Source of the DNA: Symbiodinium natans
Lineage: Eukaryota > Sar > Dinophyceae > Suessiales > Symbiodiniaceae
Length of the DNA stretch: 64,000 nucleotides
Direction of reading: 5' to 3'
NCBI GenBank assembly: GCA_905221605.1
Contig: CAJNDS010002526.1
Span: 315,327 to 379,326, forward strand
Position numbers and translations under genes: made by a program. Below, piece by piece: positions 28,854-51,305 of this stretch. The stretch's first letter is position 1, and every line of letters begins with the position of its first letter. The notes below the pieces were generated by a model, which did not search any database, was not told the origin of the DNA, and was given only the letters and a program-made list of their open reading frames with translations.

Positions 28854-29197
28854 GGACGATCCCTACGGGATAAGTCCACAGCTTGAATTCTATCCGAAGC
28901 TTCAAATCTCCGGGCTGAGCTCCGCTCAAGCTTGCTTCCAAACTGAAATCCAGTTCGAAATGTTGGGTCGCGTGTTCACATCGCTCCAAACCAAGCGACA
29001 ACGACCACTGAGATTGCGATGACGCCATATATAGAGGACAAAGCGAATCTGCCTTGTGGAGGGGAGGAAAGACCCAGGAGCCGGTTCTTCACTTCCAAAG
29101 TAAGTGGCCAGTCGCGTCGCCTGGTCCGCCTTGACTCCCGATGTCTGGAAGCCCTCGACCCTTAAGCCCTGACGAAGAGCCTCCACAGTCAGCAGCA

Positions 29198-32100: not shown

Positions 32101-32431
32101 CCAAGACAGCCGTCGTACATGGAAAGGCCTTCGTGGTGTTACTCACCCCGATGACTCCTCCATGCACATATGTTCCAGCGCCCCAACATCCTCCATCATC
32201 ACCCTGTTCTCCAAATCGCCTCGGAGCCTTCGTGGTCAAGGGCAACATGGATGCCAAGGTCTCGATCTGCTCCTTCTCGAGGACCCCTTCCCCCATGAGA
32301 GCTCTCGCATACTCCTCAGCCGGATGTCCAGGGTCCACGGGGATCACTACTTCCTCCTCCTCACGTTGCTCATCTTCTTCTCTAAGGGATTGTTTGCCCA
32401 CAGCTCGTCTCGCTGGGGGCGTTACAACTGC
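29198..32431 (-). CDS. Element 1 pol part 3: 2OG-oxygenase-like domain, RT, RNase H, TM tail
   Basis: About 1070 codons. Residue numbers count from the GTG at 32401. Residues 64-200 look like a 2OG-Fe(II) oxygenase core: H127-x-D129, distal H176 and R186 ten residues later, with strand-like GMNLIAPLSVFDGGGLLMEP between. Reverse transcriptase covers about 380-640, with the Ty1/copia pattern ICGNHID, SDITTAFL, SRPLYGLRESPATW and the catalytic YVDD (583-586; 30643-30654). RNase H follows (CFKDASYAP, SVMEAELYAA, LAVDNTSAV, HVAGAQQLADLATK). The last 150 residues hold a signal-like hydrophobic run (917-930), a strong transmembrane segment (948-974) and a basic/proline-rich tail, unusual for copia. 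The frame opens just after a TAG at 32432-32434 with AVVTPPARRAV, so translation must enter by a +1 shift from the integrase frame. Confidence 0.9.
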   Translation of the reverse strand, partial: AVVTPPARRAVGKQSLREEDEQREEEEVVIPVDPGHPAEEYARALMGEGVLEKEQIETLASMLPLTTKAPRRFGEQGDDGGCWGAGTYVHGGVIGVSNTTKAFPCTTAVLAKYMRQLFPEVSFSALFISQNIKAQAHKDVHNVGMNLIAPLSVFDGGGLLMEPKEGESYVLDVASGPVQFDPRVKHTTMPWTGSTRMVLVGYNTRGASKLEQKDKDYLLKLGFVIDHRPLPDPISGPPVGRPRIAKARPFTSPKEDRPGCPIELRPLHGTNEDLDLVLKDLDERALRLRDLLEEEEVLAEEYQRMGQISRDALNDAREEVVKFLEETREQMVEIDRAKMLGCLRVASMATAGTESDDVDYENLLQELEGDLDVVHTVPLVQVKAVLQKWVGAIKEEVTALFSSGTVFGISLDEARTMEASGDLKVAPAKCVFSLKPPKSRGGKFRRKCRVVICGNHIDPSDMSLYAGGTSTEGLRVALVFSARNHWLGAISDITTAFLLATWPGDMPKYAMRPPKVVRDTGIGASEMWVISRPLYGLRESPATWSNYRNARLKGARIKFGDRILYLNPALGESELWLVRDQQTGRLEGLVVTYVDDLFYFGPTLLIRALHDFIREEWPTSELEWVNDKVAVRYLGVEVLMHGSSYSISQHAYITELLRAHDMHDALHAELPIPREWLEKVELDEDGTEEFSEEELRLAQRYVGEASWVATKTRPDILFVVNQMATNVCRRPLHVARLGRRLLSYLAGTAELRLKLTPQDDKLGELVCFKDASYAPYGARSFGAAVITQDGAPIAWKAGRQSFITLSVMEAELYAAVHGCNLLESVASIVEELAPGEYERILAVDNTSAVAMCNGGQGSQRTRHLKIRANYIRESVARGTLTVRHVAGAQQLADLATKIMTRLRLRQLLELWGFIGVKIAEGLATMQLRVLSIILVITPTTGAKDVDFEKDDIPRVQSFELIVITLLACISAIAIWEAAKGVLRWCKNYNKKLKKEERLERIRDVASRAASREVAEAAQFSGLTQETPAAPEPLTTPRSSMRRRRPSPQPSPEVASVTSDAPTEVRDFAGDRQQAGTC

Positions 32432-32435
32432 CTAG

Positions 32436-32768
32436 TTGATGTGAGGTGAGGTACAGGCCATTGTCGCAGCGAACCACATGTCCATTTCTAACATCAACAC
32501 TTGGCCCGACATAGTATCCAGAGGTCCACCTGGTGTTGAGGTCAAACTTCCCGCCCGTCCCATAGACCTTGCTCCGCACATGGACTCGTGATCCGAAAGG
32601 AAGGACTTGATCACCTCGACCCATCACCCGCTCCCTTTGTGCCCATGCAGCGTAGGTCATCGCAAGTGTCCAACATGAGCGGGGCAGTGAGGTCGAGGTC
32701 AAGATCCTTTTGGCCTGGTTCTTGAGCCACTTCACCGCTGACTCAGCTCGGCCATTGCTCTGAGGGGG
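32436..32768 (-). CDS. Element 1 integrase C-terminal part
   Basis: Begins with QSNGRAESAVKWLKNQAKRI, carrying the third catalytic acid (E) of the integrase DDE triad. It continues with ARRAVY-type copia integrase features (SCWTLAMTYAAWAQRERV, FGSRVHVRSKVYG, TSGYYVGPSVDVRNGHVV). It is out of frame with the preceding segment because of a run of five Gs (32764-32768) where four would keep the frame. Confidence 0.85.
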
Positions 32769-33360
32769 CCTGTCCCTCAGTGTAGGTCGCTAAGGTACCT
32801 CGCTGCAGCAACCATCTCCTCAGCGAAGTACTGCGTAGTTCTCGTGCTCTGTCCGTATGGACACGGGTGATGGGAAAGCCTTCAGACCGGAGGCTCAGAT
32901 ACATGTTTTGCACAGCTGCACCCACCTCCATTGTAGTCCGTGTCCTAATCGGCCTTGCCATATAGATCACTTCGAACTCCGGCTCGCCATCACCAATTTC
33001 TGATGCAAAGATCTTCATGAACTCCTCGTCGGTGGGACCCTTCGCCAAGTGCTCCTCCTGAGGTTGATCATCCGCTTCTTGGCTTAGACCGAGAACCTCC
33101 TCAAAGAAAGCATCCCCACTTAGGTCATCCCTTCCGACGCCACCATCTCGAAATTCGCCACGTAGATGCGGGTGGAACTTATGCCCCAAATCGGTGACTC
33201 CATCCTCCACGACTGCCTGGTCTTCTTTCTGTGGTTCTTCTGGTGATTCCTGAGTGTCCACAGCCTCAGGCGCTATAGACTCACCTCCTCCTGGCTCGAC
33301 TCCATCCTCCACGACTGCCTGGTCTTCTTTCTGTGGTTCTTCTGGTGATTCCTGATTCCC
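32743..33360 (-). CDS. Element 1 integrase central part with internal duplication
   Basis: Holds the second catalytic acid in PITRVHTDRARELRS and ends TYTEGQAP just before the frame break. Between the first and second catalytic acids is an acidic insertion containing two copies of ESPEEPQKEDQAVVEDGV. At DNA level this is a 58-bp repeat, 33196-33253 and 33298-33355, with a 102-bp (34-codon) period. It joins the preceding frame by a shift near 33345-33362. Confidence 0.8.
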   Translation of the reverse strand, partial: GNQESPEEPQKEDQAVVEDGVEPGGGESIAPEAVDTQESPEEPQKEDQAVVEDGVTDLGHKFHPHLRGEFRDGGVGRDDLSGDAFFEEVLGLSQEADDQPQEEHLAKGPTDEEFMKIFASEIGDGEPEFEVIYMARPIRTRTTMEVGAAVQNMYLSLRSEGFPITRVHTDRARELRSTSLRRWLLQRGTLATYTEGQAPSEQWPS

Positions 33361-35944
33361 TCGGGAACAAGTATGCTCCCACGAGCATGTAGCGGTAATC
33401 CCGTTGGTCTGGATCTTCGCCAAGTTGTCGTAGTGGACCCAGGATATCCAGAGACAGGCAGTATGAGCTTGGAGTCTTGATTTTTCGATGCATCCTTCCC
33501 AACCCAGAAGACTCCACACAGGTCCGACATCGGCGATTGTATGGGAGGTGGTTGTTCCGGATGTGTGCCTTCCACATAGCCAGCTCCTTAGTGCTCAGGG
33601 TCTTGAGGAAGGTCTGCGGGTTGTTATCCATCTTCATCATCCACTTAACTCGTTGCACATCCTCAGGTCTCTTCGTCCTGGGTTCGTTTTCAGCCATCTG
33701 CACATGGAGGTTGGAGAGGATCCCAGGCGTTATGGTTTCCAGGCAAATCGCTTCTTTGTAGCTCGCAAAGATCTCCGAGAGGTTCCTCATGAAGCCGTCC
33801 TTGCCCTTCTCCACCTCTCCCAGAAGTTTACCCCCTTCCATAGCCACATACACTGGGAAGCCACCCCTCATGATTCTTGCAGCCTTCGCTACCAGGGACA
33901 ACCACAACTGCTTCGCCACCAACTCCTCATCCTCTGGACCTCGGCATGGTGGTGCCCCGACAATCCCATCCAACAGACCCTGAGAAGCTGCCCACAAAAG
34001 CGCCCGGTAGGTCCCTGCTGGCTTCCTGAGATTGAAGGCCTTCGAGATCCTCAAGTCCACCTCCAGAACCTGTCCCATCGTGTGGAGTTCCCGATGACCC
34101 CCATCTCCAGCAAATAGGTGTAGGGTCCAAGGTGTAGCCAGCAACGTTCTTCGAAGTCGTCGTGACACTGGCATCGCCTTGAAGTACTTGGCTCCGGTGT
34201 TGGCGTCCAAGGAAATCTCTTCCGCCAGGGTGGCCTTGATGGCTGACGACAGATTCCGAAAGGGGGATCCCTCAGACTCAATCGCCCGAAGTTGCGCCAC
34301 CCTCGATCCCGTGGTGAGGAACTCGAGCAGGTGCTGAGACCATTCCAGCTCCTTATCCCACATCCACAGAGTCTTTGCCGACATACGAGTTGCCGCCATA
34401 AGCTTGCCCTTCTTCTCCTCCAGGTCTCGGATCAACTCAAGGGCTTCCTTCTCATTGATAACGGGGCAATTTTCCACCATGCGAGGCCGAATCTCTCCTC
34501 GTTCCGGATGCTGGATCGTCATGCCCTCCTCGTTCCATTCCAGGCTGCAGTTCAAGCTCGATACGAGGTCTCCAAGAGGAACTATGGGGCTTGCATTCTC
34601 ATCCTTAGTCAGCAAAGTTCCCGATGAGGCCTGTCGCAACACCACTTCCTTTCCGTCAGCGAGCTGCACTTGTACCTCCACTGCAGATTCCAGCTCTTCC
34701 TCTGTCCCTAGGCGATAGGGATGCGATGCTCCTGAATCCAGGAGCCCCGTCCGGATCTCCGCCTCCTTTTCCACTGCTGCCAACCGAAGTGCCTTCATGT
34801 TCATCTGAGTCATCTGTCGCAGCATCATGTTGGCTTCCTTCAAGAGAGCCTGCACTTCAGTCGAAGCCTCGGAGGGCGCTGAGGGGGTAGAGCTGGTGCC
34901 ACCCAAGTTGCTGGACAAAACCCCAGACTGTGGTTCGGCACTCATAGTCGTCGCTGTGGCTGAGGTGGTCGTGGATGAAGTCGATTCGCCCACGTTGGTC
35001 TTCTGAAGAGAAGGCGCAGGGGCCTTGGGGAGACTCCTCGCCCTTGTTGGGCATTCTTTCTGAATGTGCATTTTGGAGCCACAAGTGAAGCATCTACCTT
35101 GCCTCTGTTTCTTGTCCACCTCATGGGAAAACTGGCAGCTCGCTCCCTTCTTGCATCCCTGTTCTTTCAAGGAAGCTGCCCCTCCCCTTGTTCTGCCCTT
35201 GAAAGCCACCTGTTCGAACTCGGAGAGGAGGGCCTGGTGGAGCTCCACCACGGCTGCTTGGGTAGGCTTCATATCTACCTCCAAGGTGTATCGCAGCATG
35301 TTCACCCTGAACGAGATCTCCATGCTGTCTCCCAATGGCTTCTTCACCAATGAGTCCAGGCCCTTCAGGAGGATGCTAGGGTCGGGAGGTTGCAAGCCCA
35401 CATCCCCAGCACGACGAAGCCATCTTGACCAACGGCGAAGAACATCGACTGCTTCTGTCGGGTTGGTTGCCGCCGTTGGTGACTCTAGCGCGCGGAGGAT
35501 CTGCTGCCTCTCAGCTGCTCCTCCTGGCCTGTAAAGCACTACCGCCCTCGCCAAGATCTGAAGAGTGCCCACCAATCGAGCCGCCAGGATCTCATTCTTC
35601 ACCGACTCAGGCAAGCTAGCCAAAATCATCGAGGCAGCTCTCTTATCCACTCGGGCCCATCTATTGTCTCCAACTTCCGCCAAAGCATACACTTCAGGAC
35701 GGAGATTGAGGCGATCTCGGGTGGAAGCTCCAAGGTAGGCCATGTAGTACTTCTCAAGGGATGACGATATGGCCTGCCACCACGTGGAAGATGAGTTGGA
35801 CAAGTCACCCATCGTGAGGCTGTGAAGCCAGTCCCCCACATCTATTGCACTTGTCTCTGACACCTCCGGCAGCTTCGGGAGTTCTCCAAGGCCTGGCTTC
35901 ACCACCTCCGGCTCCGAAGTCCTCGCTGTCAGAGATGCCGTCAT
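33281..35944 (-). CDS. Element 1 gag-protease-MTase-like-integrase N part
   Basis: 887 residues. A gag region (1-280) is followed by a zinc knuckle C285-x2-C288-x4-H293-x4-C298, preceded by a partial CCCH (C264, C270, H274). The aspartic protease active site is LLDSGASH (401-408, D403). Then comes a methyltransferase-like block: LHLFAGDGG (608-616, motif I), VLEVD (626-630, acidic end of motif II), IVGAPPC (661-667, motif IV, Pro-Cys) and VYVAMEGG (698-705, motif VI glutamate), the order of cytosine-C5 methyltransferases but about 140 residues long with no clear target-recognition domain. The integrase zinc motif H794-x4-H799-x6-C806-x2-C809 and first catalytic D833 (SLDILGPL) follow. After about residue 862 the frame is wrong; the real continuation is in the 32743-33360 segment. 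ATG and the upstream stop overlap as ATGA. Confidence 0.85.
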   Translation of the reverse strand: MTASLTARTSEPEVVKPGLGELPKLPEVSETSAIDVGDWLHSLTMGDLSNSSSTWWQAISSSLEKYYMAYLGASTRDRLNLRPEVYALAEVGDNRWARVDKRAASMILASLPESVKNEILAARLVGTLQILARAVVLYRPGGAAERQQILRALESPTAATNPTEAVDVLRRWSRWLRRAGDVGLQPPDPSILLKGLDSLVKKPLGDSMEISFRVNMLRYTLEVDMKPTQAAVVELHQALLSEFEQVAFKGRTRGGAASLKEQGCKKGASCQFSHEVDKKQRQGRCFTCGSKMHIQKECPTRARSLPKAPAPSLQKTNVGESTSSTTTSATATTMSAEPQSGVLSSNLGGTSSTPSAPSEASTEVQALLKEANMMLRQMTQMNMKALRLAAVEKEAEIRTGLLDSGASHPYRLGTEEELESAVEVQVQLADGKEVVLRQASSGTLLTKDENASPIVPLGDLVSSLNCSLEWNEEGMTIQHPERGEIRPRMVENCPVINEKEALELIRDLEEKKGKLMAATRMSAKTLWMWDKELEWSQHLLEFLTTGSRVAQLRAIESEGSPFRNLSSAIKATLAEEISLDANTGAKYFKAMPVSRRLRRTLLATPWTLHLFAGDGGHRELHTMGQVLEVDLRISKAFNLRKPAGTYRALLWAASQGLLDGIVGAPPCRGPEDEELVAKQLWLSLVAKAARIMRGGFPVYVAMEGGKLLGEVEKGKDGFMRNLSEIFASYKEAICLETITPGILSNLHVQMAENEPRTKRPEDVQRVKWMMKMDNNPQTFLKTLSTKELAMWKAHIRNNHLPYNRRCRTCVESSGLGRMHRKIKTPSSYCLSLDILGPLRQLGEDPDQRDYRYMLVGAYLFPRESGITRRTTERRPGSRGGWSRARRR

Positions 35945-37131
35945 CGCCGATGTCGGGCACCAACTCCATCCTGAAACCGTCCAGGGACTTGAGATAGTCC
36001 AGCAGGATTGCCTCCACCCTTTGAACCTTCAACCCCACGATCAAGCCCGGGAGGTACTCTAGGCTCAGGATATCCCGAAGGTCCAGCTAGATTGCCATCT
36101 CCAAGTGGTTGGTTCACACTCTGCTCTGAGGCCCTTGCTTCAACCACAGCACGGAGGGATTCACGAAGACGAAGATTCTCAGACTCCAGGGCCTCTTGTC
36201 GTGTCCTGGACTGCTCCAATTCTTCACGATGGTCCTTCATCGCCATCTGAACTTGCCGTTGCACCTCCGCCAGAACTTGTTCCTGGGTAAGAGACCCACT
36301 CGAAGACTCCTGCTCCCTCTGAGGCTGCTGGGGATGCAGAAGTGGAGCCCTTCGTTGCCAAGAGCTCATCATCTGCTCGGCCTCAGGAGAGAAGAGTCGG
36401 GACTGATTCTGACTCCAGGCTCGAGGCGGAGTGAGTGCAGGGCTTGGTACACCTGGAGAATGGCGAGCTGATCGTTCGAAAAGAGCCCCTGCTTGAGTAA
36501 CCCTCCTCTGAAAGAACTCTCCAAGTCTCGCCATCCAAACCACCCCATTTCCAGCAGACCTTGGCGAATTGTCATAGCCCTGCATTCTGAGTTCCTCTGG
36601 AGGTGAGAAGCTCATCTGACTCACCTGGGCATTCACAGTCACCTCCGCCAAGGGCAAGGCTGCCATCTCCATCGTCAAAGGCTGCTGCTCTGCTACGGCT
36701 GCTGCAGGGGTTGTCATTGCTTGCATGGTTGCTTGTTCATGCTCCGGTGCACCCGTTCCTTGTACGTTCGTACGTGCCACGTTAGTCGTCGCCGCGCCCG
36801 ATCCGATGTGTTCGGCCGATCCGGTGGGAATATCATCGCTCTGACAACCAGCTGTGCGTCCAGGGTCAGCGACACCATCAGGGGGCTCAACTGACTCCCG
36901 GGTCAGTTGGGCCCGCTGATGATGAGGACCACCAACACCATTCATCATTGCACTGCTTCGATCTCCAGTTGAAATCTCACCACCACTATCGACAGCACCA
37001 TAACTGGGGCCTTGCGACTCGCCCTCCATTGCCAGCACCAAGCCCTGAGCGCTTGGGCTCATAACCTGATCACCCGCAGGTGTCAGATTATGTCGTGGCA
37101 TCATCGTTGAAAGATCACTGGGCAGGGCCAT
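35941..37131 (-). CDS. Element 1 upstream gag-like protein (coiled coil)
   Basis: 396 residues from the ATG at 37131, which lies inside the LTR. A more credible start is the in-frame ATG at 37060-37062 within the primer-binding site. No named domain: a low-complexity Q/G/S-rich N-terminal half, then a coiled coil VLAEVQRQVQMAMKDHREEL and ESENLRLRESLRAVVEARAS (about 290-335). It stops in an ATGA that is also the start of the next frame, allowing termination-reinitiation or frameshift coupling. Presumably a structural gag component. Confidence 0.6.
   Translation of the reverse strand: MALPSDLSTMMPRHNLTPAGDQVMSPSAQGLVLAMEGESQGPSYGAVDSGGEISTGDRSSAMMNGVGGPHHQRAQLTRESVEPPDGVADPGRTAGCQSDDIPTGSAEHIGSGAATTNVARTNVQGTGAPEHEQATMQAMTTPAAAVAEQQPLTMEMAALPLAEVTVNAQVSQMSFSPPEELRMQGYDNSPRSAGNGVVWMARLGEFFQRRVTQAGALFERSARHSPGVPSPALTPPRAWSQNQSRLFSPEAEQMMSSWQRRAPLLHPQQPQREQESSSGSLTQEQVLAEVQRQVQMAMKDHREELEQSRTRQEALESENLRLRESLRAVVEARASEQSVNQPLGDGNLAGPSGYPEPRVPPGLDRGVEGSKGGGNPAGLSQVPGRFQDGVGARHRR
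37052..37066 (-). promoter_or_regulatory. Primer-binding site of element 1 (half-tRNA type)
   Basis: GGTTATGAGCCCAAG on the minus strand, directly after the 5' LTR. It complements the anticodon stem-loop region of initiator tRNA-Met (CTTGGGCTCATAACC) rather than the 3' CCA end, the arrangement known for Drosophila copia, which primes with a tRNA half. Identical to the site in element 2. Confidence 0.75.
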
Positions 37132-37344
37132 GGCATGGAGGGTTCAATGCGAATTGGTTTTCCACAAGCACAGCACATCGAACCTGTTGTGTCATTGCAC
37201 ATGTGATGTTTGCCTGCCCTGCATTTTGCTGGCTGCAATGTCTGCAATGACCTGCATCTGCCGGCTGCAATGTCTGCAATGACTTGCATGTTCGAGCCTC
37301 TGGCTCGGGCCGCTGAGACGAGCGACGGTTCCTGTCCACCATCA
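37067..37344 (-). repeat. 5' LTR of element 1
   Basis: 278 bp, TG..CA. Carries an extra 32-bp tandem copy (CTGCAATGTCTGCAATGAC-type unit near 37230-37280) compared with the other LTR. Confidence 0.95.
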
Positions 37345-42463: not shown

Positions 42464-42468
42464 CCCTC
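42464..42468. repeat. Target-site duplication of element 2, left copy (CCCTC)
   Basis: CCCTC abuts the first LTR base and is repeated at 51301-51305. Confidence 0.85.
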
Positions 42469-42760
42469 TGCGGAGCTGCAATTGGTATTGTAGAAAGGAG
42501 TTCGTGTTGGGGTTGGATGGGTCAATGAACCCGGAAATCATATTTGGCTCAAGATGGCCCAGAGCCGTCCGCTTTTCGTTGAAAAGGTTGTGTCCGTGTG
42601 TTGGGTGTTGGGTCTTGTGGGAGGTAGTAGTCCCGACCCTTCTCCCTTAGCCTTTCCCTCTAGGGTGGGATTCTTCTCTTACTGGTTCGATCTGGGAAAT
42701 CCATATAGGCAACTGTTAAGGGTTGGTTTCTTTCCCCTTTCCCCTTCGGTTGCCCCCGTA
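42469..42760 (+). repeat. 5' LTR of element 2
   Basis: 292 bp, TG..TA. Contains TTTGGCTCAAG (42543-42553), matching the last 11 bases of the dinoflagellate spliced leader. Confidence 0.9.
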
Positions 42761-42775
42761 GGTTATGAGCCCAAG
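42761..42775 (+). promoter_or_regulatory. Primer-binding site of element 2
   Basis: GGTTATGAGCCCAAG, identical over 15 bases to the site of element 1 and complementary to the initiator tRNA-Met anticodon region. It begins at the first base after the LTR. Confidence 0.75.
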
Positions 42776-42827
42776 TTAGGTTCCCTGCGGTTGAGTGTTG
42801 TCTTAAGATCTTTGGGATCAAGAAGCA

Positions 42828-44108
42828 ATGCCTTCCCCGAAGCGATGGCTCCAACCTGCCTCGGATGGTGGACAGAATGGTGGAGCTGGAAATGGTGCAG
42901 CTGAGTCTCTGGGTGAAAGATCGGTGCTGGAAGAGGTGATTCCCGGCGCTGAAGAACATCTGGAAGAAGTCTTGGTTGCAGAAAGCCCCAATGTGGGTAT
43001 GAGTCCCAATGTGGATATGGTTAGCAATGCTGAAGCTGAAGGACGCGCTGTCTCTGTATCGCCAAAGCCTGGTGAAAAAAGGAACTGGGATGCGACTGGT
43101 GGTATAGATCGTGAAATGGAGGTGACTGTTTTACGAGTGTTGCAAAAACACGGGTATCAGCCGTCGACTTCGACTTCGGGTCGAATGGTAGACCAAGGGT
43201 CTCAGACCGATCTGATTGGAGAAGTGCCGCAAGCGACCAGGAGGCCTCTGAACAAGATCAAAAGGGGTCCATCTTCGAGTTCCCAAGGTGGTGGAAGCGG
43301 TCACGAACAGAAGGGTGCGGACAGCTTTGAAGCTGCACCTGCTGCTGAATACGCCATGGGGGAGGAGGAGATCCTACAGATGGAGGCTGAACGGTTGCGA
43401 CAGCTGTCAGAAGAAGAGGACGAGATGCGTCAGGTCCCGGAAAGGGATGGTTTTCAGAAGGATGAGCATCTGATCAGAGCGTGTGATGGCACAATGTGGG
43501 AATGGCACCTCCATGAAGATGGGAGACAATATTACTACTGCCTGGATACGCAGGAAAGCAAGTGGACATTGCCGGTTGTAGGTGAAAAGATGAAGAGTGA
43601 CGAGGTGGTTGGGTCTCCTTCGGGCAATGAGCTGGAAATGGAGGCTGCACTGGGTTCTTCATCCTCTACGACGCCTGAGTCTACGAGGGCATTCCAGGGT
43701 AGTGTAAATAGTTTAGGTGAAAAAGATTTTTCCTCTACTATCAGGGATAGCGGTCCTAGGGCTGGTGGTGACGCCCCGACCTCGGGTTCTCCTGATGAGG
43801 AGGGGATTCCTGGAAACCGAGCCGACATCGCTGGAGCTCAACATCTGGATCGGGAAGGAATGGGAGCGCTTTCTGAGGGTGTGGCAGCGGTGGAATCGGT
43901 AGGTCCAGAAGAAAAAATTCCCAATGTGGAGATCGGAACTGTGTCGGCTGCAGAAGAGCGAGTGGTGGATGTGGTACCTGTCGTTCAGGAAGGTGGTCCT
44001 GGAGATTCGGAAGACGGAGGGAAAAGTTGTGTGTTACGACTGAGGAGGTCTCTTCGTTTGGTGCCAAGATTCCTGCCATTCAAGGGGAAAAAGAAGCTTC
44101 TGGAATAG
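42828..44108 (+). CDS. Element 2 frame 1: acidic protein with WW domain
   Basis: 426 residues from the first ATG after the primer site. A WW domain covers about 222-251: W226, the aromatic trio YYY at 235-237, W246 and P249, the canonical 20-residue W-to-W spacing plus Pro. WW domains bind proline-rich peptides. The rest is acidic and low-complexity. After about residue 400 (44030) the frame changes character to basic (LRLRRSLRLVPRFL), while another frame continues the acidic style. The true protein therefore probably shifts frame there and is fused to the next segment. No gag or protease motif. Confidence 0.75.
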   Translation: MPSPKRWLQPASDGGQNGGAGNGAAESLGERSVLEEVIPGAEEHLEEVLVAESPNVGMSPNVDMVSNAEAEGRAVSVSPKPGEKRNWDATGGIDREMEVTVLRVLQKHGYQPSTSTSGRMVDQGSQTDLIGEVPQATRRPLNKIKRGPSSSSQGGGSGHEQKGADSFEAAPAAEYAMGEEEILQMEAERLRQLSEEEDEMRQVPERDGFQKDEHLIRACDGTMWEWHLHEDGRQYYYCLDTQESKWTLPVVGEKMKSDEVVGSPSGNELEMEAALGSSSSTTPESTRAFQGSVNSLGEKDFSSTIRDSGPRAGGDAPTSGSPDEEGIPGNRADIAGAQHLDREGMGALSEGVAAVESVGPEEKIPNVEIGTVSAAEERVVDVVPVVQEGGPGDSEDGGKSCVLRLRRSLRLVPRFLPFKGKKKLLE

Positions 44109-46471
44109 CTGGAGACACGGAAGATCTGAAAGATGAGGCCTGGAGCGCCAATGATGCGCGGGTCGATGCGCCAGATAGTACCTGGAGTGCGAAGGAGGCA
44201 CGGGTTGAGGTGCATATGGTGTTACGTTCCACGGGCGACTGCAACAATGGGGCGCAGGTCTCCGCAGCAGCTGATGATGGAGGTTCACAGGTGGACGCAC
44301 TGGTGCAACCTGAAGTTAGCCGCGAGGAACGAAATGACAAGGGCTACACCGGAGCCAATGAGGCAGCTGTGGTCAATGATGGTGGCAATTCTCCTTTGGA
44401 AACCATGGAACCAAAGGAGCCTGCGGTGGAAGAAAGTGTGCCTGCCGTGGATGATCAACTCAATCGCCCTGCAGTGGAAGAAAATTTGCCTGCTGCAGAA
44501 GGTGTGACAAAGGACTCCAATGATGGGTCCACTCCCAGGAAGGGAGAAGTGTTGCCGTCTGGAAGTTCGCCGGAAGTCGACACCGAGCGAACTGAAGCAG
44601 ATGAGGCAAAGCCTTTGGCGGAGAAAAAGGGAGGTCCTGAAATCCAGGAGCACAAAAAAGATGAGCTTGTGGGACTCGTGGAGCAGGACGAGCAGTGTGA
44701 CCCAAAGGTGAAGACAAAGGATGCGCCAGGAGCCGATGATACAGAGGTGGTTTCTGAAGAGCATGCAAAGAAAGTGCCCCGAGCGGGAGCCTTGGAATCA
44801 CCTGGGACACATTGCTATCAAGAGGGAGATGAGATCATGGGTCTAGTGCGCTGCATCAATGGGTATGGAGCCTTTTTGGACCATGGTGATATGAATGTAT
44901 TGGTTCCTGCAGAAGGGAACAATGCATATCAGTTCAAATTTGGTGATACTGTCAATGGAACAGTGAAACGAGTGGAAGATGATGGTACCATAATCTTGGA
45001 CACCTTTCTGGTTTTGGAAGAGGACGTGGAGGACTCTTCTTCGACGCTGCGGAAGTGGAAACCCAGCGGCTGGAGTACGTGGTGGACGGATTCATGGTAT
45101 GCTGGTCAATGGTACCAAGATTCCAACGGTCAATGGGACTGGAAACAGGAGGAAGAGCAATCCGATGAAGAGCTTGTGGTACAGGAGTTATCCTCTGAAG
45201 AACGAGAAGAAAGGCAACTTTATGGAGAAAAGATCTACAAAGCTCTTCTGGAGAATGGAAACGAAGATGAAGCCTATGTTGGCAAAATTACTGGGATGCT
45301 GTTGGGTCGCCCGATGGAAGATTTACAGGAGTGTGTTGCAGATCATGCATTCCTCAATGCGGAAGCTCGGCGCGCGTATGGCATCTTGCAAAACGATGGT
45401 TGGAAGCCTGATGGTACAGAAAGCACAGGCTTGGGAAAGTTAACCACTTTTTCCCGAAAACAGTACCACAACGCGCTTTTCGAACTGGCATGCAGAAAAA
45501 GGAGATTTACTCGACCAGTTGTGGGTGAAGCGGTGGCAACGGTGCTGAATCAAGGGGAAGATGAGTTTTGGAACGCGCTTTGGTTGGACACCAAGCTATT
45601 TTTGCAGGAGCTTGATGGTGCAGTGCAATCCATGAGCAAAAGGGAGAACAAGCCAATGGAAGCCTACATGGACCCTGACCAGTACAAAAAGGCTCACATG
45701 ACTCCACAGACTGTGTCACCTGGATACAGCAAACTGTGCAAGTTCTTCAATAAGGGAAGGTGTCGCAACGGTGATGGTTGTCCCTATGAGCATCGTCGTT
45801 ATGGTGAAGGTTGGCCAGAAGGGGGGTCAACTGATCCAAAGAACAGCCAAGAAGCTGAAGATGAGGATGGGAACATCGGTGACCCTCCCACAGAGGAAGG
45901 TACAGTGGATGAGGCACAGCAGGAGCGGGAGGATTTAGCCTTCCGGGCCAAGTACAATTTTGGCAAAGGTGCATCAAAGGGTGAACCTACGTCGGGTGAG
46001 CCAAAAGGTCGTCTGTGTCTGTATTACAATCAAGGTGGTTGTAAATATGGGACTACATGCAGGTATCGTCACAACGATGACATAGCATTGGAAGGGACTT
46101 GGGAGCCCGGCAAATCTTGGGACAATGCTTCCAGGAAGGCACTAAGGGACGCAGGGTTCCACCATTGCTGTTTCGATTATTACCTCAGAGGACGTTGCCG
46201 GAAAGGGTCAAATTTCTGCAAGTACTCCCACGACGAGATGTCAGATGAGCGGCTGACGCTCCTGAAACACTTGGTACAGGTGGCCAATCAGGTCCGGTTT
46301 GAAAAAGAGAGAGGATGGGAAATTTCGGACAGAAGCACTTTTCAGCCACCTGCGAGTGGGGGAGCTGAATCTTCCTCATCCTCGGCACCAAAAGCGCTGC
46401 AAATGACCAATGTGTCACAAAAAGAAGGTGAAAAAGGTATTCTGGATGAAGAAGCTGAATTCGGTGGCTGA
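44027..46471 (+). CDS. Element 2 frame 2: S1-like, MLLE-like and three CCCH fingers
   Basis: 814 residues. 1-260: acidic, disordered. 265-326: S1/OB-like fold (EGDEIMGLVRCINGYGAFLD, then FGDTVNGTVKRVEDDGTIIL). 345-372: tryptophan-rich. 396-458: strong resemblance to the C-terminal MLLE (PABC) domain of poly(A)-binding protein, with the hallmark KITGMLL (420-426) and the preceding LYGEKIYKALLE helix; in PABP this binds PAM2 peptides of translation and deadenylation factors. Three CCCH zinc fingers follow: C571-x7-C579-x5-C585-x3-H589, C664-x7-C672-x5-C678-x3-H682 and C715-x8-C724-x6-C731-x3-H735. The combination predicts an mRNA-binding, cytoplasmic protein. The frame loses sense at about 46440-46471. 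Confidence 0.8.
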   Translation: MCVTTEEVSSFGAKIPAIQGEKEASGIAGDTEDLKDEAWSANDARVDAPDSTWSAKEARVEVHMVLRSTGDCNNGAQVSAAADDGGSQVDALVQPEVSREERNDKGYTGANEAAVVNDGGNSPLETMEPKEPAVEESVPAVDDQLNRPAVEENLPAAEGVTKDSNDGSTPRKGEVLPSGSSPEVDTERTEADEAKPLAEKKGGPEIQEHKKDELVGLVEQDEQCDPKVKTKDAPGADDTEVVSEEHAKKVPRAGALESPGTHCYQEGDEIMGLVRCINGYGAFLDHGDMNVLVPAEGNNAYQFKFGDTVNGTVKRVEDDGTIILDTFLVLEEDVEDSSSTLRKWKPSGWSTWWTDSWYAGQWYQDSNGQWDWKQEEEQSDEELVVQELSSEEREERQLYGEKIYKALLENGNEDEAYVGKITGMLLGRPMEDLQECVADHAFLNAEARRAYGILQNDGWKPDGTESTGLGKLTTFSRKQYHNALFELACRKRRFTRPVVGEAVATVLNQGEDEFWNALWLDTKLFLQELDGAVQSMSKRENKPMEAYMDPDQYKKAHMTPQTVSPGYSKLCKFFNKGRCRNGDGCPYEHRRYGEGWPEGGSTDPKNSQEAEDEDGNIGDPPTEEGTVDEAQQEREDLAFRAKYNFGKGASKGEPTSGEPKGRLCLYYNQGGCKYGTTCRYRHNDDIALEGTWEPGKSWDNASRKALRDAGFHHCCFDYYLRGRCRKGSNFCKYSHDEMSDERLTLLKHLVQVANQVRFEKERGWEISDRSTFQPPASGGAESSSSSAPKALQMTNVSQKEGEKGILDEEAEFGG

Positions 46472-46720
46472 ATCCACTGGTATTCGGCTTCAGAATCCGG
46501 AGGAGCCAATTGAAAATTGGATGGCTCGCAACAAACACCTGTGGGTGTATACCCCTCATGTAAGTGAGGTGATGATTACCCTTGGTGTGACCAATGTGTC
46601 GGACTTGCAAGAGTTCATCTTTGTGGAAGATTTGGTTGACAAAGGGATCAACAAAGTGACCGCATGCAAAATTCTGCAATTGGTTGGTGGTGTCCGATAT
46701 CGTCCGGGAGGACCGGGAAA
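46440..46720 (+). CDS. Element 2 frame 3: short SAM-like linker
   Basis: In a third frame the reading continues KKLNSVAESTGIRLQNPEEP, then TPHVSEVMITLGVTNVSDLQ and EFIFVEDLVDKGINKVTACK. The helix pattern with VEDLVDKGINKVTACKIL resembles the last helices of a SAM (sterile alpha motif) domain, a protein or RNA interaction fold. Both neighbours overlap it, so it only makes sense as the middle of a frameshifted polyprotein. Confidence 0.5.
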
Positions 46721-49700
46721 AAGCAGTTCCTTCCGATGCATCTGTACGGGTACAACAATCTTCTGGGAGCAAAGGAACTGGAAGAGCGGCGGTGCGAACC
46801 CTCACTCAGGTGCGTGAAGCTGAAGACTCCGGTGCAAAAACCATGCCGAGAGGCTCCTATCGGGAGCTTTTTGATAAGGTCAGGTACCGTGATGCTTGGA
46901 CGCTTGCGCAGAGGTCTCCGCTGTGCGTACAGAAGCTGCAGTTGGTGGGAGTTGGAATGCCGCCGGTGAATCCACCAACAAAAAAGTATCGGTCAAGATC
47001 AAACCCTGTGAAAAGGGGAAGGCCCTTGCTGGACAAAAAACAGGTGCGACAAGTGCCACGCTCTCGGTCACAACGACGAGTGCAACCGGCAGAAGTGGTG
47101 GAAAAGCCGAAGCCACTGGAACTGAAGCCTCGTGGTGGGTTGTCGTATCGGTTCAGCAGAGCGTGGGCAGATGTGGTGGATGATGATGAACAGGCGGAGG
47201 CCTTGGTCTCGTATGCCGCTTCCTCAAGCGATTCAAGCGAGGAGGAGACCAATGCCGCGCAACGCCTGAAGGAAATCTTTTTGAAAGAAAGGGATTCACA
47301 GAGAACTGCGATTCGTGGCAATGTTCCGCAGAGTGGTTCTTCAGGCTCCAATGACGGGCTGAACAAATCGGTTCACCTTGGCAAAGGGCGCGACAAAGCG
47401 TCGCGGGGGGAGACCCGCCAAGAAGTGACTTCACAAGTTTTTTCGCTACCACAACCTTCTCGTCGAACTGAACAGTCTCAAAAAAGAGCAAGGGATGGTT
47501 CAGTTATGGTTGGTTCGCTGGCGGTGGGCTCCACGGATGAGGTTTTACCTGGGCAAGGTGTTGCTGGACAGGTGAATGTATCTGAAAGCGCTCAAGTTCT
47601 TCCTGGGCAAGAAGTGGCTGGACAGGAGACGGCGCTGGAAGGAGCAGTACAAATTTCTGGCGAGGAGACTGACCAAAAAGAAGGAGAAGGTAGGAGCAAT
47701 GAACTCCGTGGTGATGGGGCGAAGATATTGGATGTTTGTCCGGTGAAGATGGACCCTCAGCAATTGCTGGTTAAAGGTCTTCTGACTCGGATTTATTGGA
47801 AGGTTGCAGTTGGCAAGTTGCCGGTGGGGCAAAGAGACTGCCAAAAAGGGTCCAATAAGATGGATCGAAATTTGGTTATTAGCATGTCATCCGAGGGTGC
47901 AAGCGAACAGGATGAGAACCTGGCACTGGAGGACGATGCTGATCAGTCAATGGGTGACGGTGCGATGGTAGTTCTGGTGTATGATCCAAGGACGCTGATT
48001 CAGTCGCCAACAACTGATTGGGTTATGCGTCGTGGTCTGACCGATCGTTCCGTCTGGCCAGCAATGGCGTACATGGCACAGAGGATATGTGCTGAAATGG
48101 TTCAAGTGGATGAAATGAATGCCCAGCTAGGGACTGGAGCACTCCTTTTTCAAAGGAGAGATCAAGGATATTATTGTGACCTGCATCATTCGTTCCATGA
48201 CAATCCGTGCTTGCCGGCGGTGGGAAATTACCCTCTTTCGGTGATGGGTGCCTTGTTGTCTCCTGGTCTGGAAGGGGAATTCAAAAATACTGACAAGTTT
48301 GGAACTGCTATGGAGGCAATTGCCTATGATTGGAGTCGCAGTCCAGGCATGGAAGTTCACATTGAACTTATGGCGAGGGTAGCCAAAATGGTTCACCCGT
48401 TCCTGAATCTTGGAGCCCAGGGGTCGGTGATGGTTTCGGAATTTCTCTGGCAGCGCGGGAGGGCCCGGTTGATGGAGTTCCTTCAAGCGGCGACTTGTGC
48501 GGACCAATTGGAGGCTCTCTGGAGAAGGATGGACGACGATGCTGATGAAGAGGTGGATCCTTCGACAGCGGTGCTGGAAGTTCTTGGACCAGAGGATGCG
48601 GTACTTGATCAAGGGAACAATGAATCCCTTATTCCCATTGAAGATGCTGGAGGTGAGACAAGTGGTGACACTGGAGGGGATGGCAAAGCGCCAGAAGTCT
48701 CTCCGGAAGAGGAGACATCCAGTGGGTCATCAAGACTGGCGGACACAAGGATTTTCTTGTGGTCAGTGTACTCCCGCGTGGCTTCGAATTTCTCTATGCA
48801 GGACCGCACTACTGGTAAGATCTTTGACAGCACAAAAGGGTATCCTGGTGAAGGACCAAACAATGATGACAATCCTTCCTCTAAGAGGAACTTACCCTGG
48901 ATCTCGGAAGACTACCTCGACGAAGTGGTGTCAAAAAAGATGGAAAGGTCTTCAGATATGGATGGGTTTGTTCCGGGAAGTGAGGGACCATTGGAAAAGG
49001 TAGAGGTGGAGAATGTTACTGCCTCTAAAATTCTTATGGCTCTTTGGAAGAAGGGACATAGAGTTGGTTATAGGAGGTTGTGTCGTTTGAACGCATCTGG
49101 ATGCAAGGTTGGAGCAATGAAACGTCCAATCAAAAGGGTGCAGAAGATTGGCACTAGAAAGGCCTTCATGAAGATGTTCAATGTTTTTGGATCGTCTCAG
49201 CATGGCTCAGGAGTTGGCGGAAAACCGATCATGAAGGTGGTAGGACCAAGGCCAGGTTTTCCAGCTGTACTCCAAGCACCAAATACTGATAGCACGTCGG
49301 GTGAAGGGAGCAGTCCCCAGGTACATGGCAATGTTCATGTAGAGCACAATCGCCCTATGGACCGGTATGAGGCAGAGCGCTTGGAGAAGAGGAAGAAGGG
49401 CTTCTGCTATTGGTTCGGCAAGGGGAAAGATCGCTGCAAATTTGGTGACGACTGCAAATTCATCCATTCCGAAGATGATGTGGTGCTACATTCGTATTGG
49501 TGCAAATACTATGTGGCAGGGAGAGAATGTTTCGCTGGAAAGGATTGTGAGTTCTCGCATGATGCAACTGGTGTGAGGTGCATCCAGTTTGCTCGGTCTG
49601 GGAAGTGTCGGTTTGGTGACAGGTGTGTCTTCGGGCATGATGTTCCGCTGGAAGAACAGAGGCCAAGGTCTCCAAGGACGCCCCCAAGGGATGGTCCAAG

Positions 49701-49890
49701 GAGAAGTTCTGGTGCAAATGGTGGTGAAAAGGAGATCTCTCCTGAACAGTTCGATGATGGTGAGGAGGATTTTATGGTTTATGACGAAGAGACCAAGATG
49801 ACGGAACTGTTGATGGAGGCGATTTCATTTCTGTCCAATGGCAAGCCAGATTTGGCTCGAGCAGAGGCGGACCATTGTTCAAACTCCTGA
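46684..49890 (+). CDS. Element 2 frame 4: large protein with C-terminal triple CCCH
   Basis: 1068 residues. 1-170 is basic (KKYRSRSNPVKRGRPLLDKK), then a disordered acidic part with repeats of LPGQ-VAGQ. 400-640 looks globular and helical (TDWVMRRGLTDRSVWPAMAY, MEVHIELMARVAKMVHPFLN) but is unrecognised and may be the capsid-like part. Three zinc fingers lie at about 907-983: C-x9-C-x5-C-x3-H (CYWFGKGKDRCKFGDDCKFIH without spaces exceeds a short motif, so only spacing is given), C-x8-C-x5-C-x3-H and C-x8-C-x5-C-x3-H. The run ends EMDNS-like acid/leucine sequence. No polymerase, protease or integrase motif. It could be translated as part of one polyprotein with its neighbours. Confidence 0.7.
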   Translation: MVVSDIVREDREKAVPSDASVRVQQSSGSKGTGRAAVRTLTQVREAEDSGAKTMPRGSYRELFDKVRYRDAWTLAQRSPLCVQKLQLVGVGMPPVNPPTKKYRSRSNPVKRGRPLLDKKQVRQVPRSRSQRRVQPAEVVEKPKPLELKPRGGLSYRFSRAWADVVDDDEQAEALVSYAASSSDSSEEETNAAQRLKEIFLKERDSQRTAIRGNVPQSGSSGSNDGLNKSVHLGKGRDKASRGETRQEVTSQVFSLPQPSRRTEQSQKRARDGSVMVGSLAVGSTDEVLPGQGVAGQVNVSESAQVLPGQEVAGQETALEGAVQISGEETDQKEGEGRSNELRGDGAKILDVCPVKMDPQQLLVKGLLTRIYWKVAVGKLPVGQRDCQKGSNKMDRNLVISMSSEGASEQDENLALEDDADQSMGDGAMVVLVYDPRTLIQSPTTDWVMRRGLTDRSVWPAMAYMAQRICAEMVQVDEMNAQLGTGALLFQRRDQGYYCDLHHSFHDNPCLPAVGNYPLSVMGALLSPGLEGEFKNTDKFGTAMEAIAYDWSRSPGMEVHIELMARVAKMVHPFLNLGAQGSVMVSEFLWQRGRARLMEFLQAATCADQLEALWRRMDDDADEEVDPSTAVLEVLGPEDAVLDQGNNESLIPIEDAGGETSGDTGGDGKAPEVSPEEETSSGSSRLADTRIFLWSVYSRVASNFSMQDRTTGKIFDSTKGYPGEGPNNDDNPSSKRNLPWISEDYLDEVVSKKMERSSDMDGFVPGSEGPLEKVEVENVTASKILMALWKKGHRVGYRRLCRLNASGCKVGAMKRPIKRVQKIGTRKAFMKMFNVFGSSQHGSGVGGKPIMKVVGPRPGFPAVLQAPNTDSTSGEGSSPQVHGNVHVEHNRPMDRYEAERLEKRKKGFCYWFGKGKDRCKFGDDCKFIHSEDDVVLHSYWCKYYVAGRECFAGKDCEFSHDATGVRCIQFARSGKCRFGDRCVFGHDVPLEEQRPRSPRTPPRDGPRRSSGANGGEKEISPEQFDDGEEDFMVYDEETKMTELLMEAISFLSNGKPDLARAEADHCSNS

Positions 49891-50642
49891 AGTTCGCTGG
49901 AGATACTGACCAAATGGATCAAGTATGGGTTTCGTGGACCACTGGTATGTTGACCGTGCTGGAACTTCTCGAAGTTGTGAAGTTTTATGAGGTTTCGCTC
50001 ACGGAGGTGGAAGAATGGGTCAATGACCTGAGGATATGGTACGAGCGAGCCAATTTGGGAGAAGAAAAGGATTCCAAAAGAGGCACAAAGAGGTCCCTAG
50101 AAAGGGAGTCCAGCAAGGATTTTCCTGCCGAAAAAGAAGTGGTTGAGACTTCGGAGACGGAGGTTGCCGTTGAGGAGGAGAAGAAAAAGGTAAAAAAGAA
50201 GAGGAAAGCTGCAGCTATCGAAGATCCTTACACTCTCATGGTTCCAAAGCCGAAGAAGATGCCGGCGATCATTGAGAAGGGTGGATCATCATCCAATGTG
50301 GTGGCTTCTGCAGTGGAAAAAGCCTCGAAAGTGTGCACAAAGTCAAATGTCGGTGGAAAGACAAAGAAGAAGGAGAAAAGTCAGAGTCCCAAAAAAGAAG
50401 AGGTGGTAATGGTGCAAGATCCTGAGGAAAAGGATCGTCCATCTGATGCGGATGCACCAGGGTCTGCCACTGCGAATGCAGAGCTGGGTCAATCTTGCCA
50501 GGCGATTGAGGACGCAAAGAGAGAAGGATTGGTATCCTCAATTCAAAGGGGCGTACAGGATCCTGTTCTTACAGTTTCGGACCTGGAGTATATTCTGCTG
50601 CAACTTCACCTCAAGATTGCCAACAATCGGAAAAAGAAGTGA
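49875..50642 (+). CDS. Element 2 frame 5: lysine-rich C-terminal protein
   Basis: About 255 residues, opening upstream without ATG (SSRGGPLFKLLKF), so it is probably reached by a frame change from the CCCH protein. An N-terminal helical part (TVLELLEVVKFYEVSLTEVE) precedes an extremely K/E-rich region with KKKVKKKRKAAA, nuclear-localisation-like, and a final helix LTVSDLEYILLQLHLKIANN ending in RKKK. Family unknown. Confidence 0.6.
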   Translation: MFKLLKFAGDTDQMDQVWVSWTTGMLTVLELLEVVKFYEVSLTEVEEWVNDLRIWYERANLGEEKDSKRGTKRSLERESSKDFPAEKEVVETSETEVAVEEEKKKVKKKRKAAAIEDPYTLMVPKPKKMPAIIEKGGSSSNVVASAVEKASKVCTKSNVGGKTKKKEKSQSPKKEEVVMVQDPEEKDRPSDADAPGSATANAELGQSCQAIEDAKREGLVSSIQRGVQDPVLTVSDLEYILLQLHLKIANNRKKK

Positions 50643-51012
50643 TTGGATGGTATGGATGAAGGGATGGTTTTTCTCTTTCTGGAGACAGGTGCGCTGGAAC
50701 AGCCAATGTGCTGACAATGTGGTGGTTACTATTAAGGGTATGGAAATCCCTGATAGTAGAAGTCAGTAGCTTTTCGCGTAGCGAAGACCACGGTTTGTGG
50801 TGAAGAAGGCCAAGGAGTCTTCAGTGATGAGAGGATCATGGTGAAAAGAGATTCTCTGTGGGTAGTAGGTTAGCCAATGTGCTATAATTCCGTCCTGGAA
50901 GACGTTAAACCATAACATGCATTTCAAGCAGCTGGCTGCTGCCTTAATGGCAGTTTTTGGCCAAAATATCTGCACCTCCAAGGTGTCCTAGGAAATCCTA
51001 GGACAGCGGGAG
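50643..51012 (+). other. Element 2 3' untranslated region and polypurine tract
   Basis: No open frame of note. It ends AGCGGGAG immediately before the right LTR, a short purine run that could serve as polypurine tract. CCTAGGAAATCCTAGG (50986-51003) is a perfect small hairpin beside it. Confidence 0.55.
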
Positions 51013-51300
51013 TGCGGAGCTGCAATTGGTATTGTAGAAAGGAGTTCGTGTTGGGGTTGGATGGGTCAATGAACCCGGAAATCATATTTGGCTCAAGATG
51101 GCCCAGAGCCGTCCGCTTTTCGTTGAAAAGGTTGTGTCCGTGTGTTGGGTGTTGGGTCTTGTGGGAGGTAGTAGTCCCGAAATTTCTTAGCCTTTCCCTC
51201 TAGGGTGGGATTCTTCTCTTACTGGTTCGATCTGGGAAATCCATATAGGCAACTGTTAAGGGTTGGTTTCTTTCCCCTTTCCCCTTCGGTTGCCCCCGTA
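51013..51300 (+). repeat. 3' LTR of element 2
   Basis: 288 bp, direct copy of 42469-42760 apart from one short internal replacement near 51178-51190. Confidence 0.9.
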
Positions 51301-51305
51301 CCCTC
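51301..51305. repeat. Target-site duplication of element 2, right copy (CCCTC)
   Basis: Identical to 42464-42468. Confidence 0.85.

What the first reader, a model, noticed from the sequence alone, without database searches (positions are those of the whole stretch)
42469..51300. An 8.8-kb LTR element with no polymerase, made of mRNA-binding modules (WW, S1-like, MLLE-like, six CCCH)
The sequence shows LTRs, a 5-bp target duplication, a primer-binding site and about 7.8 kb of nearly continuous coding frames, yet no PR, IN, RT or RNase H motif in any frame. Instead it encodes a WW domain, an S1-like fold, a KITGMLL-type MLLE domain as in poly(A)-binding protein, and two CCCH triplets. Non-autonomous LTR elements normally carry gag only or nothing. 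A MLLE domain could tie the element's RNA to PAM2-bearing translation or deadenylation factors; CCCH fingers could package RNA. Inference: a host-mRNA-mimicking retroelement or a new gag type.
Basis: partly seen in the sequence, partly recalled or inferred. Interest (0 to 1): 0.92.

Follow-up and report, generated by a model that had tools for sequence, protein, structure and literature searches.

The report
Polymerase-less telomere-targeting dinoflagellate LTR retroelement
A multi-copy dinoflagellate jumping element has lost the usual copying enzymes but keeps one giant protein built of mRNA-handling modules under natural selection, and the copies examined all sit in telomere-like repeats.

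Summary
Window 42469-51300 is an LTR element with a 5-bp duplication, a hemivirus-type half-tRNA-Met primer site and no recognisable protease, integrase, RT or RNase H. Its 'five frames' are one ORF with four frame changes in this copy; relatives keep a single ~2,600-aa ORF (WW, S1, MLLE, 3 CCCH, 3 CCCH), and none of 66 protein clusters found shows a polymerase domain. In the window's own genome I examined the 15 LTR pairs among 40 scored LTR hits (1,465 candidates). In all 15 this ORF fills the interior (median dN/dS 0.41). All 15 have matching 5-bp duplications in telomere-type repeats, 13 in one repeat context. The LTR carries a dinoflagellate spliced-leader relict. A second, 12.5-kb family with the same primer site, target and a related CCCH region encodes ~3,766 codons, again without pol. 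Best reading: a clade of pol-less LTR retrotransposons, copied in trans by Ty1/copia-type enzymes, whose polyprotein handles its own RNA as an mRNP. Helper and protein function are inferred, not shown.

The parts
42464..42468 (.). 5-bp target-site duplication, left copy (CCCTC)
   Evidence: matches 51301-51305; 15 of 15 copies have matching 5-bp duplications
42469..42760 (+). 5' LTR (292 bp, TG..TA)
   Evidence: 40 scored hits at 97-100% in the genome
42539..42553 (+). DinoSL (spliced leader) relict in the 5' LTR, CAT[A]TTTGGCTCAAG
   Evidence: 0 of 2000 dinucleotide shuffles reach the full-length fit score, 2 of 3000 the local score; TTTGGCTCAAG in 15 of 15 copies
42761..42775 (+). primer-binding site, half-tRNA initiator-Met type (GGTTATGAGCCCAAG)
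   Evidence: 0.12 expected, 2 found; GGTTATGAGCCCAA in 15 of 15 copies
42828..44030 (+). polyprotein segment 1 (ORF1)
   Evidence: first 400 codons dN/dS median 0.26
43494..43574 (+). WW domain
   Evidence: Pfam 16 bits, sub-threshold; relatives best E 1.8e-4; profile hits PRPF40A WW E 0.0035; several signature residues invariant in A3
44027..46450 (+). polyprotein segment 2 (ORF2)
   Evidence: frame change near 44030 absent from relatives such as P0001
44819..44998 (+). S1-like domain
   Evidence: Pfam 13.7 bits, sub-threshold; 15 of 24 members match at E 0.5; phmmer to ribosomal S1 chains E 9.5e-6 (two partial stretches)
45197..45385 (+). MLLE domain with KITGMLL core
   Evidence: Pfam 30.1 bits, cut-off 27; 24 of 24 members match at E 0.5; PDB hit to PABP 1ifw E 4.5e-4
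45737..46237 (+). three CCCH zinc fingers, first cluster
46449..46724 (+). polyprotein segment 3, no known domain
46717..49872 (+). polyprotein segment 4 (ORF4), includes a conserved domain of unknown fold at about 47990-48600
49405..49641 (+). three CCCH zinc fingers, second cluster
49872..50639 (+). polyprotein segment 5 (ORF5), charged C-terminal part, ends at the stop shared with P0064-P0066
51000..51012 (+). short polypurine tract (AGGACAGCGGGAG)
   Evidence: CAG(G/C)GGGAG in 15 of 15 copies
51013..51300 (+). 3' LTR (288 bp), with the same DinoSL relict at 51083-51097
51301..51305 (.). 5-bp target-site duplication, right copy (CCCTC)

Best explanation
Each encodes one ~2,600-aa polyprotein (WW - S1 - MLLE - 3 CCCH - conserved unknown domain - 3 CCCH - basic tail) and no recognised enzyme. 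SHOWN: LTR anatomy, multi-copy intact ORFs under purifying selection, absence of recognisable pol in the 15 copies examined, a half-tRNA-Met primer site identical to that of a Ty1/copia element in the same window, integration into telomere-type repeats with a 5-bp duplication, an LTR-borne spliced-leader relict, and mosaic proteins. INFERRED: (1) reverse transcription and integration come in trans from hemivirus-type Ty1/copia elements; copia-type pol with long open frames is abundant in this genome. (2) The transcript is trans-spliced like a host mRNA. The LTR's own spliced-leader copy lets the trans-spliced 5' end still pair with the 3' LTR, so strand transfer works. (3) The polyprotein replaces or supplements Gag: CCCH fingers and S1 bind the element's RNA, MLLE docks PAM2-bearing poly(A)/translation/decay factors, and the RNA is thereby held in an mRNP pool that the helper packages. 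(4) Target choice is a property of the helper integrase, or less likely of the polyprotein.
For: No-pol; the precomputed Pfam lists of the 66 clusters name only CCCH, Torus and MLLE models or nothing. Intact single ORF: P0064 2435 aa/288 members, P0065 2609 aa/32, P0066 2606 aa/1; stop-free frames of 2613 and 2617 codons in L032 and L044. Selection: median dN/dS 0.41, range 0.23-0.57, in the 95 of 105 pairs with dS>0.02; at 50-65% identity relatives P0056, P0017, P0061 would carry about 23-28 stops if neutral, and have none. Anatomy in 15 of 15 copies. Helper type: PBS identity with the window copia; half-tRNA priming from nucleotide 40 is the mark of hemiviruses (PMC1181622 and PMC5371799, passages); 3,268 first-look candidates for copia pol, 43 scored, many in open frames near 3,000 codons. 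Copies with a broken frame may still spread: the representative P0001 of a 40-member cluster shares the window copy's frame change at 46450 (its members were not inspected), and the window copy has near-identical LTRs yet four frame changes. Spliced leader: sequence from PMC6050394. Mosaicism. Second family.
Against: No helper has been identified. The window's Ty1/copia family has only 3 elements and the 2 outside the window are not in telomere arrays in the 60-90 bp of flank seen, so sharing its primer site does not make it the helper. WW and S1 are weak by Pfam. No PAM2 motif found in the window copia proteins. No expression, RNA-binding or particle data. Some frame changes may be assembly errors. 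A diverged enzyme fold in the unknown domain cannot be excluded because the structure model failed.
Confidence: 0.75

Rival explanations
1. A giant Gag: the ORF4 conserved domain is a diverged capsid, so the element is a gag-only non-autonomous retrotransposon with an unusually modular Gag; the CCCH clusters act as nucleocapsid. (This overlaps with step 3 of the best explanation.)
For: Gag-only families are known (Bik-1/Bik-2, PMC10996621, passages). The window's copia Gag also combines a CCHC with a CCCH-like motif. The ORF4 domain of about 180 aa is predicted mostly helical (very low confidence).
Against: No Pfam Gag hit in the members scanned or in the read-through frames, although the window copia Gag is itself recognised by Pfam only through its zinc knuckle; no significant similarity to that Gag (best E 0.17); mean pLDDT 31.
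Confidence: 0.35
2. An autonomous element with an unrecognised, highly diverged polymerase inside the polyprotein.
For: A large part of the polyprotein has no known domain. Family 2 holds one YRDD tetrapeptide.
Against: RVT_2 is found at once in the same window's copia element. 0 of 18, 0 of 24 and 0 of 18 members (overlapping sets) match any RT/IN/RH/PR model at E 0.5. In P0064/P0065 [YF]xDD occurs only in a CCCH finger or acidic stretches. Family 2 has no Pfam RT either. tblastn with the window copia proteins finds nothing in 15 copies or in L058/L059.
Confidence: 0.05
3. A host mRNP gene captured between LTRs and carried as passenger (transduplication), with no role in transposition.
For: The modules are typical host mRNA-binding modules; dinoflagellate mRNAs are often retroposed with spliced-leader relicts (PMC6050394, passages).
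Against: A second family with different LTR and largely different protein keeps the same plan, target and a related CCCH region; purifying selection among element copies; no host gene with this order was found, since the 63 clusters other than P0064-P0066 align over about 60% or more of their length to P0065. A host gene of quite different length, or one beyond the 8,000-candidate caps, would have been missed.
Confidence: 0.12
4. The telomere-array location reflects survival (safe sites) and not targeting.
For: Telomere-type units are common here: 0.6, 7, 15 and 23% of four control pieces. The window copia is also in such an array although its two sisters are not.
Against: 13 of 15 insertions use the duplication CCCTA (or complement) in TAAACCCTA context, versus 224 of 20,000 control positions (1.1%). 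One phase of the 7-bp repeat is used in both orientations. Family 2 (2 of 2) and two further LTR hits were found by a pattern that demanded CCCTA, so they are not independent evidence.
Confidence: 0.1

Closest known systems
Hemiviruses (half-tRNA-primed Ty1/copia: copia, Ty5, 1731, Osser)
   Same: Primer site begins exactly at the LTR and is complementary to an initiator-Met anticodon arm up to nucleotide 40 (tRNA recalled); 5-bp target duplication; Ty5 also goes to telomere regions (PMC4700185, passages).
   Different: No gag-pol. Ty5 is targeted to silent chromatin through Sir4, not to a fixed phase of the telomere repeat.
Gag-only non-autonomous LTR elements (Bik-1/Bik-2 of zebrafish; TR-GAG of plants)
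   Same: LTRs, coding-conserved protein, no pol, thought to be mobilised in trans (PMC10996621 passages; TR-GAG seen only in a search listing).
   Different: The protein here is ~2,600-3,800 aa, with WW, S1, MLLE and CCCH modules (family 2: CCCH only), and no recognised Gag.
SART1 telomere-specific non-LTR retrotransposon
   Same: Inserts into telomeric repeats (search listing with start of abstract).
   Different: Non-LTR, with its own enzymes (recalled); here LTR-bounded, 5-bp duplication, no recognised enzyme.
Dinoflagellate DNMT-carrying LINE and DIRS retrotransposons
   Same: Dinoflagellate retroelements that took up a host-like domain (PMC5890265 passages).
   Different: They keep RT and recombinase or endonuclease; the domain is an enzyme.
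Poly(A)-binding protein (PABPC1, Pab1)
   Same: MLLE domain with the KITGMLL core.
   Different: No RRM hit here; MLLE is one module of a retroelement polyprotein.

Membership tests
LTR retrotransposon | Two near-identical LTRs, TG..CA-like ends, target-site duplication | tested here: met
   15 of 15 (ends TG..TA)
LTR retrotransposon | PBS after 5' LTR and PPT before 3' LTR | tested here: met
   PBS 15 of 15, short PPT 15 of 15
LTR retrotransposon | PR/IN/RT/RH in autonomous members | tested here: not met
   hence called non-autonomous
Hemivirus (Ty1/copia) | Half-tRNA-iMet primer site ending at nucleotide 40 | tested here: met
   tRNA numbering and iMet sequence from recall, no dinoflagellate tRNA was compared
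Hemivirus (Ty1/copia) | copia-order PR-IN-RT/RH | tested here: not met
   so not filed as a copia element, only as using that replication type
Gag-only non-autonomous element | Recognisable Gag capsid | tested here: inconclusive
   no Pfam Gag; structure failed
Telomere-specific retroelement | Insertion in telomeric repeats | tested here: met
   15 of 15 next to telomere-type repeats (telomere-unit fraction of 300-bp flanks 0.07-0.51; one 47-bp flank 0.89), 13 of 15 in one context; chromosome-end location not tested
PABP-type MLLE protein | MLLE above Pfam cut-off with conserved KITGMLL | tested here: met
   (some relatives fall below the cut-off, e.g. P0009 and P0017)
PABP-type MLLE protein | PAM2 binding | not testable with these tools
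   needs a binding assay

The most novel reading that the evidence does not exclude
A previously undescribed clade of retroelements has discarded polymerase, integrase and (perhaps) capsid. It survives as an mRNA mimic: spliced-leader copy in the LTR to stay compatible with trans-splicing, a PABP-like/CCCH/S1 polyprotein to run its own mRNP, and phase-specific integration into telomere repeats through a borrowed, or its own, targeting function. At least two families (2.6k and 3.8k codons) show it is a stable life style and not a decayed relic.
Probability: 0.4. Interest if true: 0.95.

Novelty: new variant of a known kind. Interest (0 to 1): 0.87.

Why it matters
Non-autonomous LTR elements are usually thought to carry gag or nothing. 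Here a very large protein without recognised enzyme is kept by selection over many copies, so it probably helps the element. It links retroelement spread to host mRNP biology (MLLE/PAM2), gives a testable answer to how an LTR element copes with universal spliced-leader trans-splicing, and provides an LTR element with phase-specific telomere-repeat integration. In the open paper library, no paper holds retrotransposon + MLLE + LTR as whole words (0 papers). I saw no title or abstract start describing such elements in the listings, of which only the top rows were shown (8 of 8, 20 of 105, 7 of 7, 15 of 57, 10 of 12, 8 of 36, 8 of 36). Subscription journals are mostly not covered.

Tried and rejected
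Idea that the frames are separate ORFs or programmed shifts: rejected, relatives and two genomic copies read through in one frame. Idea that the window's Ty1/copia element is the autonomous partner: not supported, different LTR, 3 copies only, other two copies outside telomere arrays. Homology of its Gag to the polyprotein: none significant. PAM2 motif in copia proteins as partner for MLLE: none. Spliced-leader relict in the copia LTR (626 of 2000 dinucleotide shuffles reach its score) or in the family-2 LTR (531 of 1000 mononucleotide shuffles): not significant. A 12-mer spliced-leader search of the whole window alone was not significant (7 of 100 shuffles) and the 21-mer with up to 3 mismatches found nothing; the significant test is the gapped fit within the LTR. 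AlphaFold of ORF4: useless, so no fold search was run. A helper with the same target was sought by pattern; it gave family 2, variants of family 1, and one third LTR type (C268:84064) whose interior I could not read. Ten of the 40 LTR hits (C1001, C2004, C2056:737478, C1887, C580, C2522, C2495, C2238, C2144, C570) had no partner among the scored hits and were not examined as elements; the 15 pairs are all that could be formed.
Full report
OBSERVATION. The LTRs are 42469-42760 and 51013-51300. 284 of 291 aligned columns are identical and all differences lie in one small patch. The element is flanked by CCCTC on both sides, and its first bases after the LTR are GGTTATGAGCCCAAG. Pfam finds MLLE and CCCH above their cut-offs; WW and S1 are below cut-off in this copy. 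Six-frame read-through scans show no polymerase, integrase, protease or Gag model, while the Ty1/copia element at 29-37 kb of the same window is recognised (RVT_2 E 1.9e-12).

ONE ORF, NOT FIVE. Three protein searches returned 39, 30 and 13 clusters, 66 distinct, 781 member sequences by my sum of the tables. Searches scored only the 8,000 and 7,995 best candidates, and all three admit only a range of lengths, so the numbers are lower bounds. Mapping them to the window DNA shows ORF1-ORF5 fused in various combinations and wholly in P0064-P0066. P0064 (2,435 aa, 288 members), P0065 (2,609 aa, 32) and P0066 (2,606 aa, 1) run to the same C-terminus. The window copy has four frame changes (near 44030, 46450, 46720, 49872). 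The representative P0001 shares the 46450 change, so copies with a truncated protein seem to have multiplied or been duplicated.

DOMAINS. MLLE matches in 24 of 24 members of alignment A2 and S1 in 15 of 24 at E 0.5. WW matches in 4 of 18 members of A3. By sequence against the PDB: MLLE to yeast Pab1 (E 4.5e-4); S1 to ribosomal S1 chains (E 9.5e-6, two partial stretches); WW to PRPF40A (E 0.0035, profile); CCCH to RBM22 (E 0.085, weak). The 24 CCCH ligand positions are 98.5% conserved against 79% elsewhere and 76% for other Cys/His. The KITGMLL core is kept in 34-39 of 39 sequences per position.

COPIES IN THE WINDOW'S OWN GENOME. G000 (759 Mb; the window is C2214:315327-379326) gave 40 scored LTR hits out of 1,465 first-look candidates. 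They form 15 pairs and 10 singles. I fetched the 14 other pairs. With the window copy, 15 of 15 are 8.60-8.86 kb, with LTRs 288-293 bp (0-4 substitutions between the two LTRs), PBS GGTTATGAGCCCAA(A/G), PPT CAG(G/C)GGGAG, and the TTTGGCTCAAG motif in the LTR. 2,439-2,605 codons of the polyprotein align in every copy, with 0-4 in-frame stops, leaving 444-916 bp of interior unaligned; tblastn with the window copia proteins finds only the copia control. L032 and L044 have stop-free frames of 2,613 and 2,617 codons; the other 13 are broken by frame changes or stops. Pairwise dN/dS (Nei-Gojobori) has median 0.41 and range 0.23-0.57 in the 95 of 105 pairs with dS above 0.02; the first 400 codons have median 0.26 (87 of 105 pairs). 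Independently, divergent relatives such as P0017, P0056 and P0061 would be expected to hold about 23-28 stop codons under neutrality and hold none (database proteins are open by selection, but 1,000-1,300 open codons at 50-65% identity is itself the point).

TARGET. All 15 insertions lie next to CCCTAAA/TTTAGGG-type repeats (TTTGGGG variant in L042; some arrays short, telomere-unit fraction of 300-bp flanks 0.07-0.51) and all 15 have matching 5-bp duplications. In 13 of 15 the duplication is CCCTA (or its complement) in TAAACCCTA context; the window copy has CCCTC and L042 TGGGG. Telomere-type units are common in this genome (0.6, 7, 15 and 23% of four 5-kb control pieces), but only 224 of 20,000 control positions offer that context. 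The control is four pieces only, on contigs that also hold copies. Whether the arrays are true chromosome ends was not tested.

REPLICATION TYPE. The primer site equals that of the window's Ty1/copia element, 15 of 15 bases. It is complementary to an initiator-Met anticodon arm up to position 40 (tRNA recalled). Priming from nucleotide 40 of a half-tRNA is the mark of hemiviruses such as copia and Ty5 (PMC1181622, PMC5371799; passages). A helper is needed. Copia-type pol is plentiful (3,268 first-look candidates, 43 scored, many in frames near 3,000 codons). The window's own copia family is a poor candidate because its two sister copies are not in telomere arrays.

SPLICED LEADER. Dinoflagellate mRNAs receive the 22-nt DinoSL (PMC6050394, passages). 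The LTR holds CAT[A]TTTGGCTCAAG. The gapped full-length fit scores 12; 0 of 2,000 dinucleotide shuffles reach it (local score: 2 of 3,000), and within one unit of that score the two LTRs are the only places on either strand of the 64-kb window. Inference: the genomic RNA has been trans-spliced, and the LTR copy keeps terminal redundancy for first-strand transfer.

MOSAICS. Sliding identities jump within single proteins. P0065 versus P0066 is 60% at 800-900 (around the MLLE), 74% at 700-800 and 84-99% elsewhere, while P0066 versus P0064 is 89% at 800-900. P0065 versus P0064 is 53% at 200-300 and 98% at 1200-1300. This is what template switching between co-packaged RNAs would give; gene conversion is an alternative.

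A SECOND FAMILY. A pattern search for CCCTA-TG...PBS found an unrelated 244-bp LTR. The element at C2422:376753-389230 (12.5 kb; LTRs 99.6% identical; CCCTA on both sides; PPT GAAAGGGGGAG) has one stop-free frame of about 3,766 codons (stop to stop) with CCCH fingers (6 by Pfam, 7 by motif) and no other Pfam domain. It resembles family 1 in the CCCH region (24-26% over about 230 aa, best E 4e-10; such short-motif similarity could partly be convergent). Of its second copy (C2442) only the first part was read; it differs with dN/dS about 0.46 in 516 codons (12 synonymous, 18 non-synonymous changes).

INTERPRETATION. The element works like other trans-mobilised non-autonomous LTR elements, but its coding part is neither a relic nor a recognised Gag. 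Most likely the polyprotein packages or shepherds the element's own mRNA, with MLLE as a handle on host poly(A)/decay factors. That step is inference. The giant-Gag rival remains open because the structure prediction failed.

Noticed in passing
window 28595-37344 (-): A Ty1/copia element: LTRs 250/282 bp (88%), same primer site, 5-bp duplication GGTTC, RVT_2 pol, a Gag with CCHC plus a CCCH-like motif; three copies found in G000.
   Followed up: partly
L058/L059 (G000 C2422:376753-389230) and L057 (C2442): Second polymerase-less LTR family in telomere arrays with one ~3,766-codon frame rich in CCCH fingers.
   Followed up: partly
G000 C268:84064: Third LTR type with a CCCTA target and the same primer site; interior unread, possible helper.
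   Followed up: no
window about 25-29, 37, 40-42.5, 51.3-53 and 54-63 kb: Long degenerate CCCTAAA arrays make up a large part of the window; four control pieces of this genome also carry such units (0.6-23%).
   Followed up: partly
window 12440-14608 (+): Open frame of 722 aa with proline-rich, lysine/glycine-rich and CCCH-like stretches.
   Followed up: no
window 22976-24532 (+): Open frame of 518 aa that reads like a tubulin-tyrosine-ligase-type protein (by eye, from recall).
   Followed up: no
window 33196-33253 and 33298-33355: Identical 58-bp direct repeat inside the copia element near where its frames overlap.
   Followed up: no
G000 C1734, C1114, C2052 and others: Copia-type pol matches in open frames near 3,060 codons, about 35% identical to the window's copia pol.
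   Followed up: no
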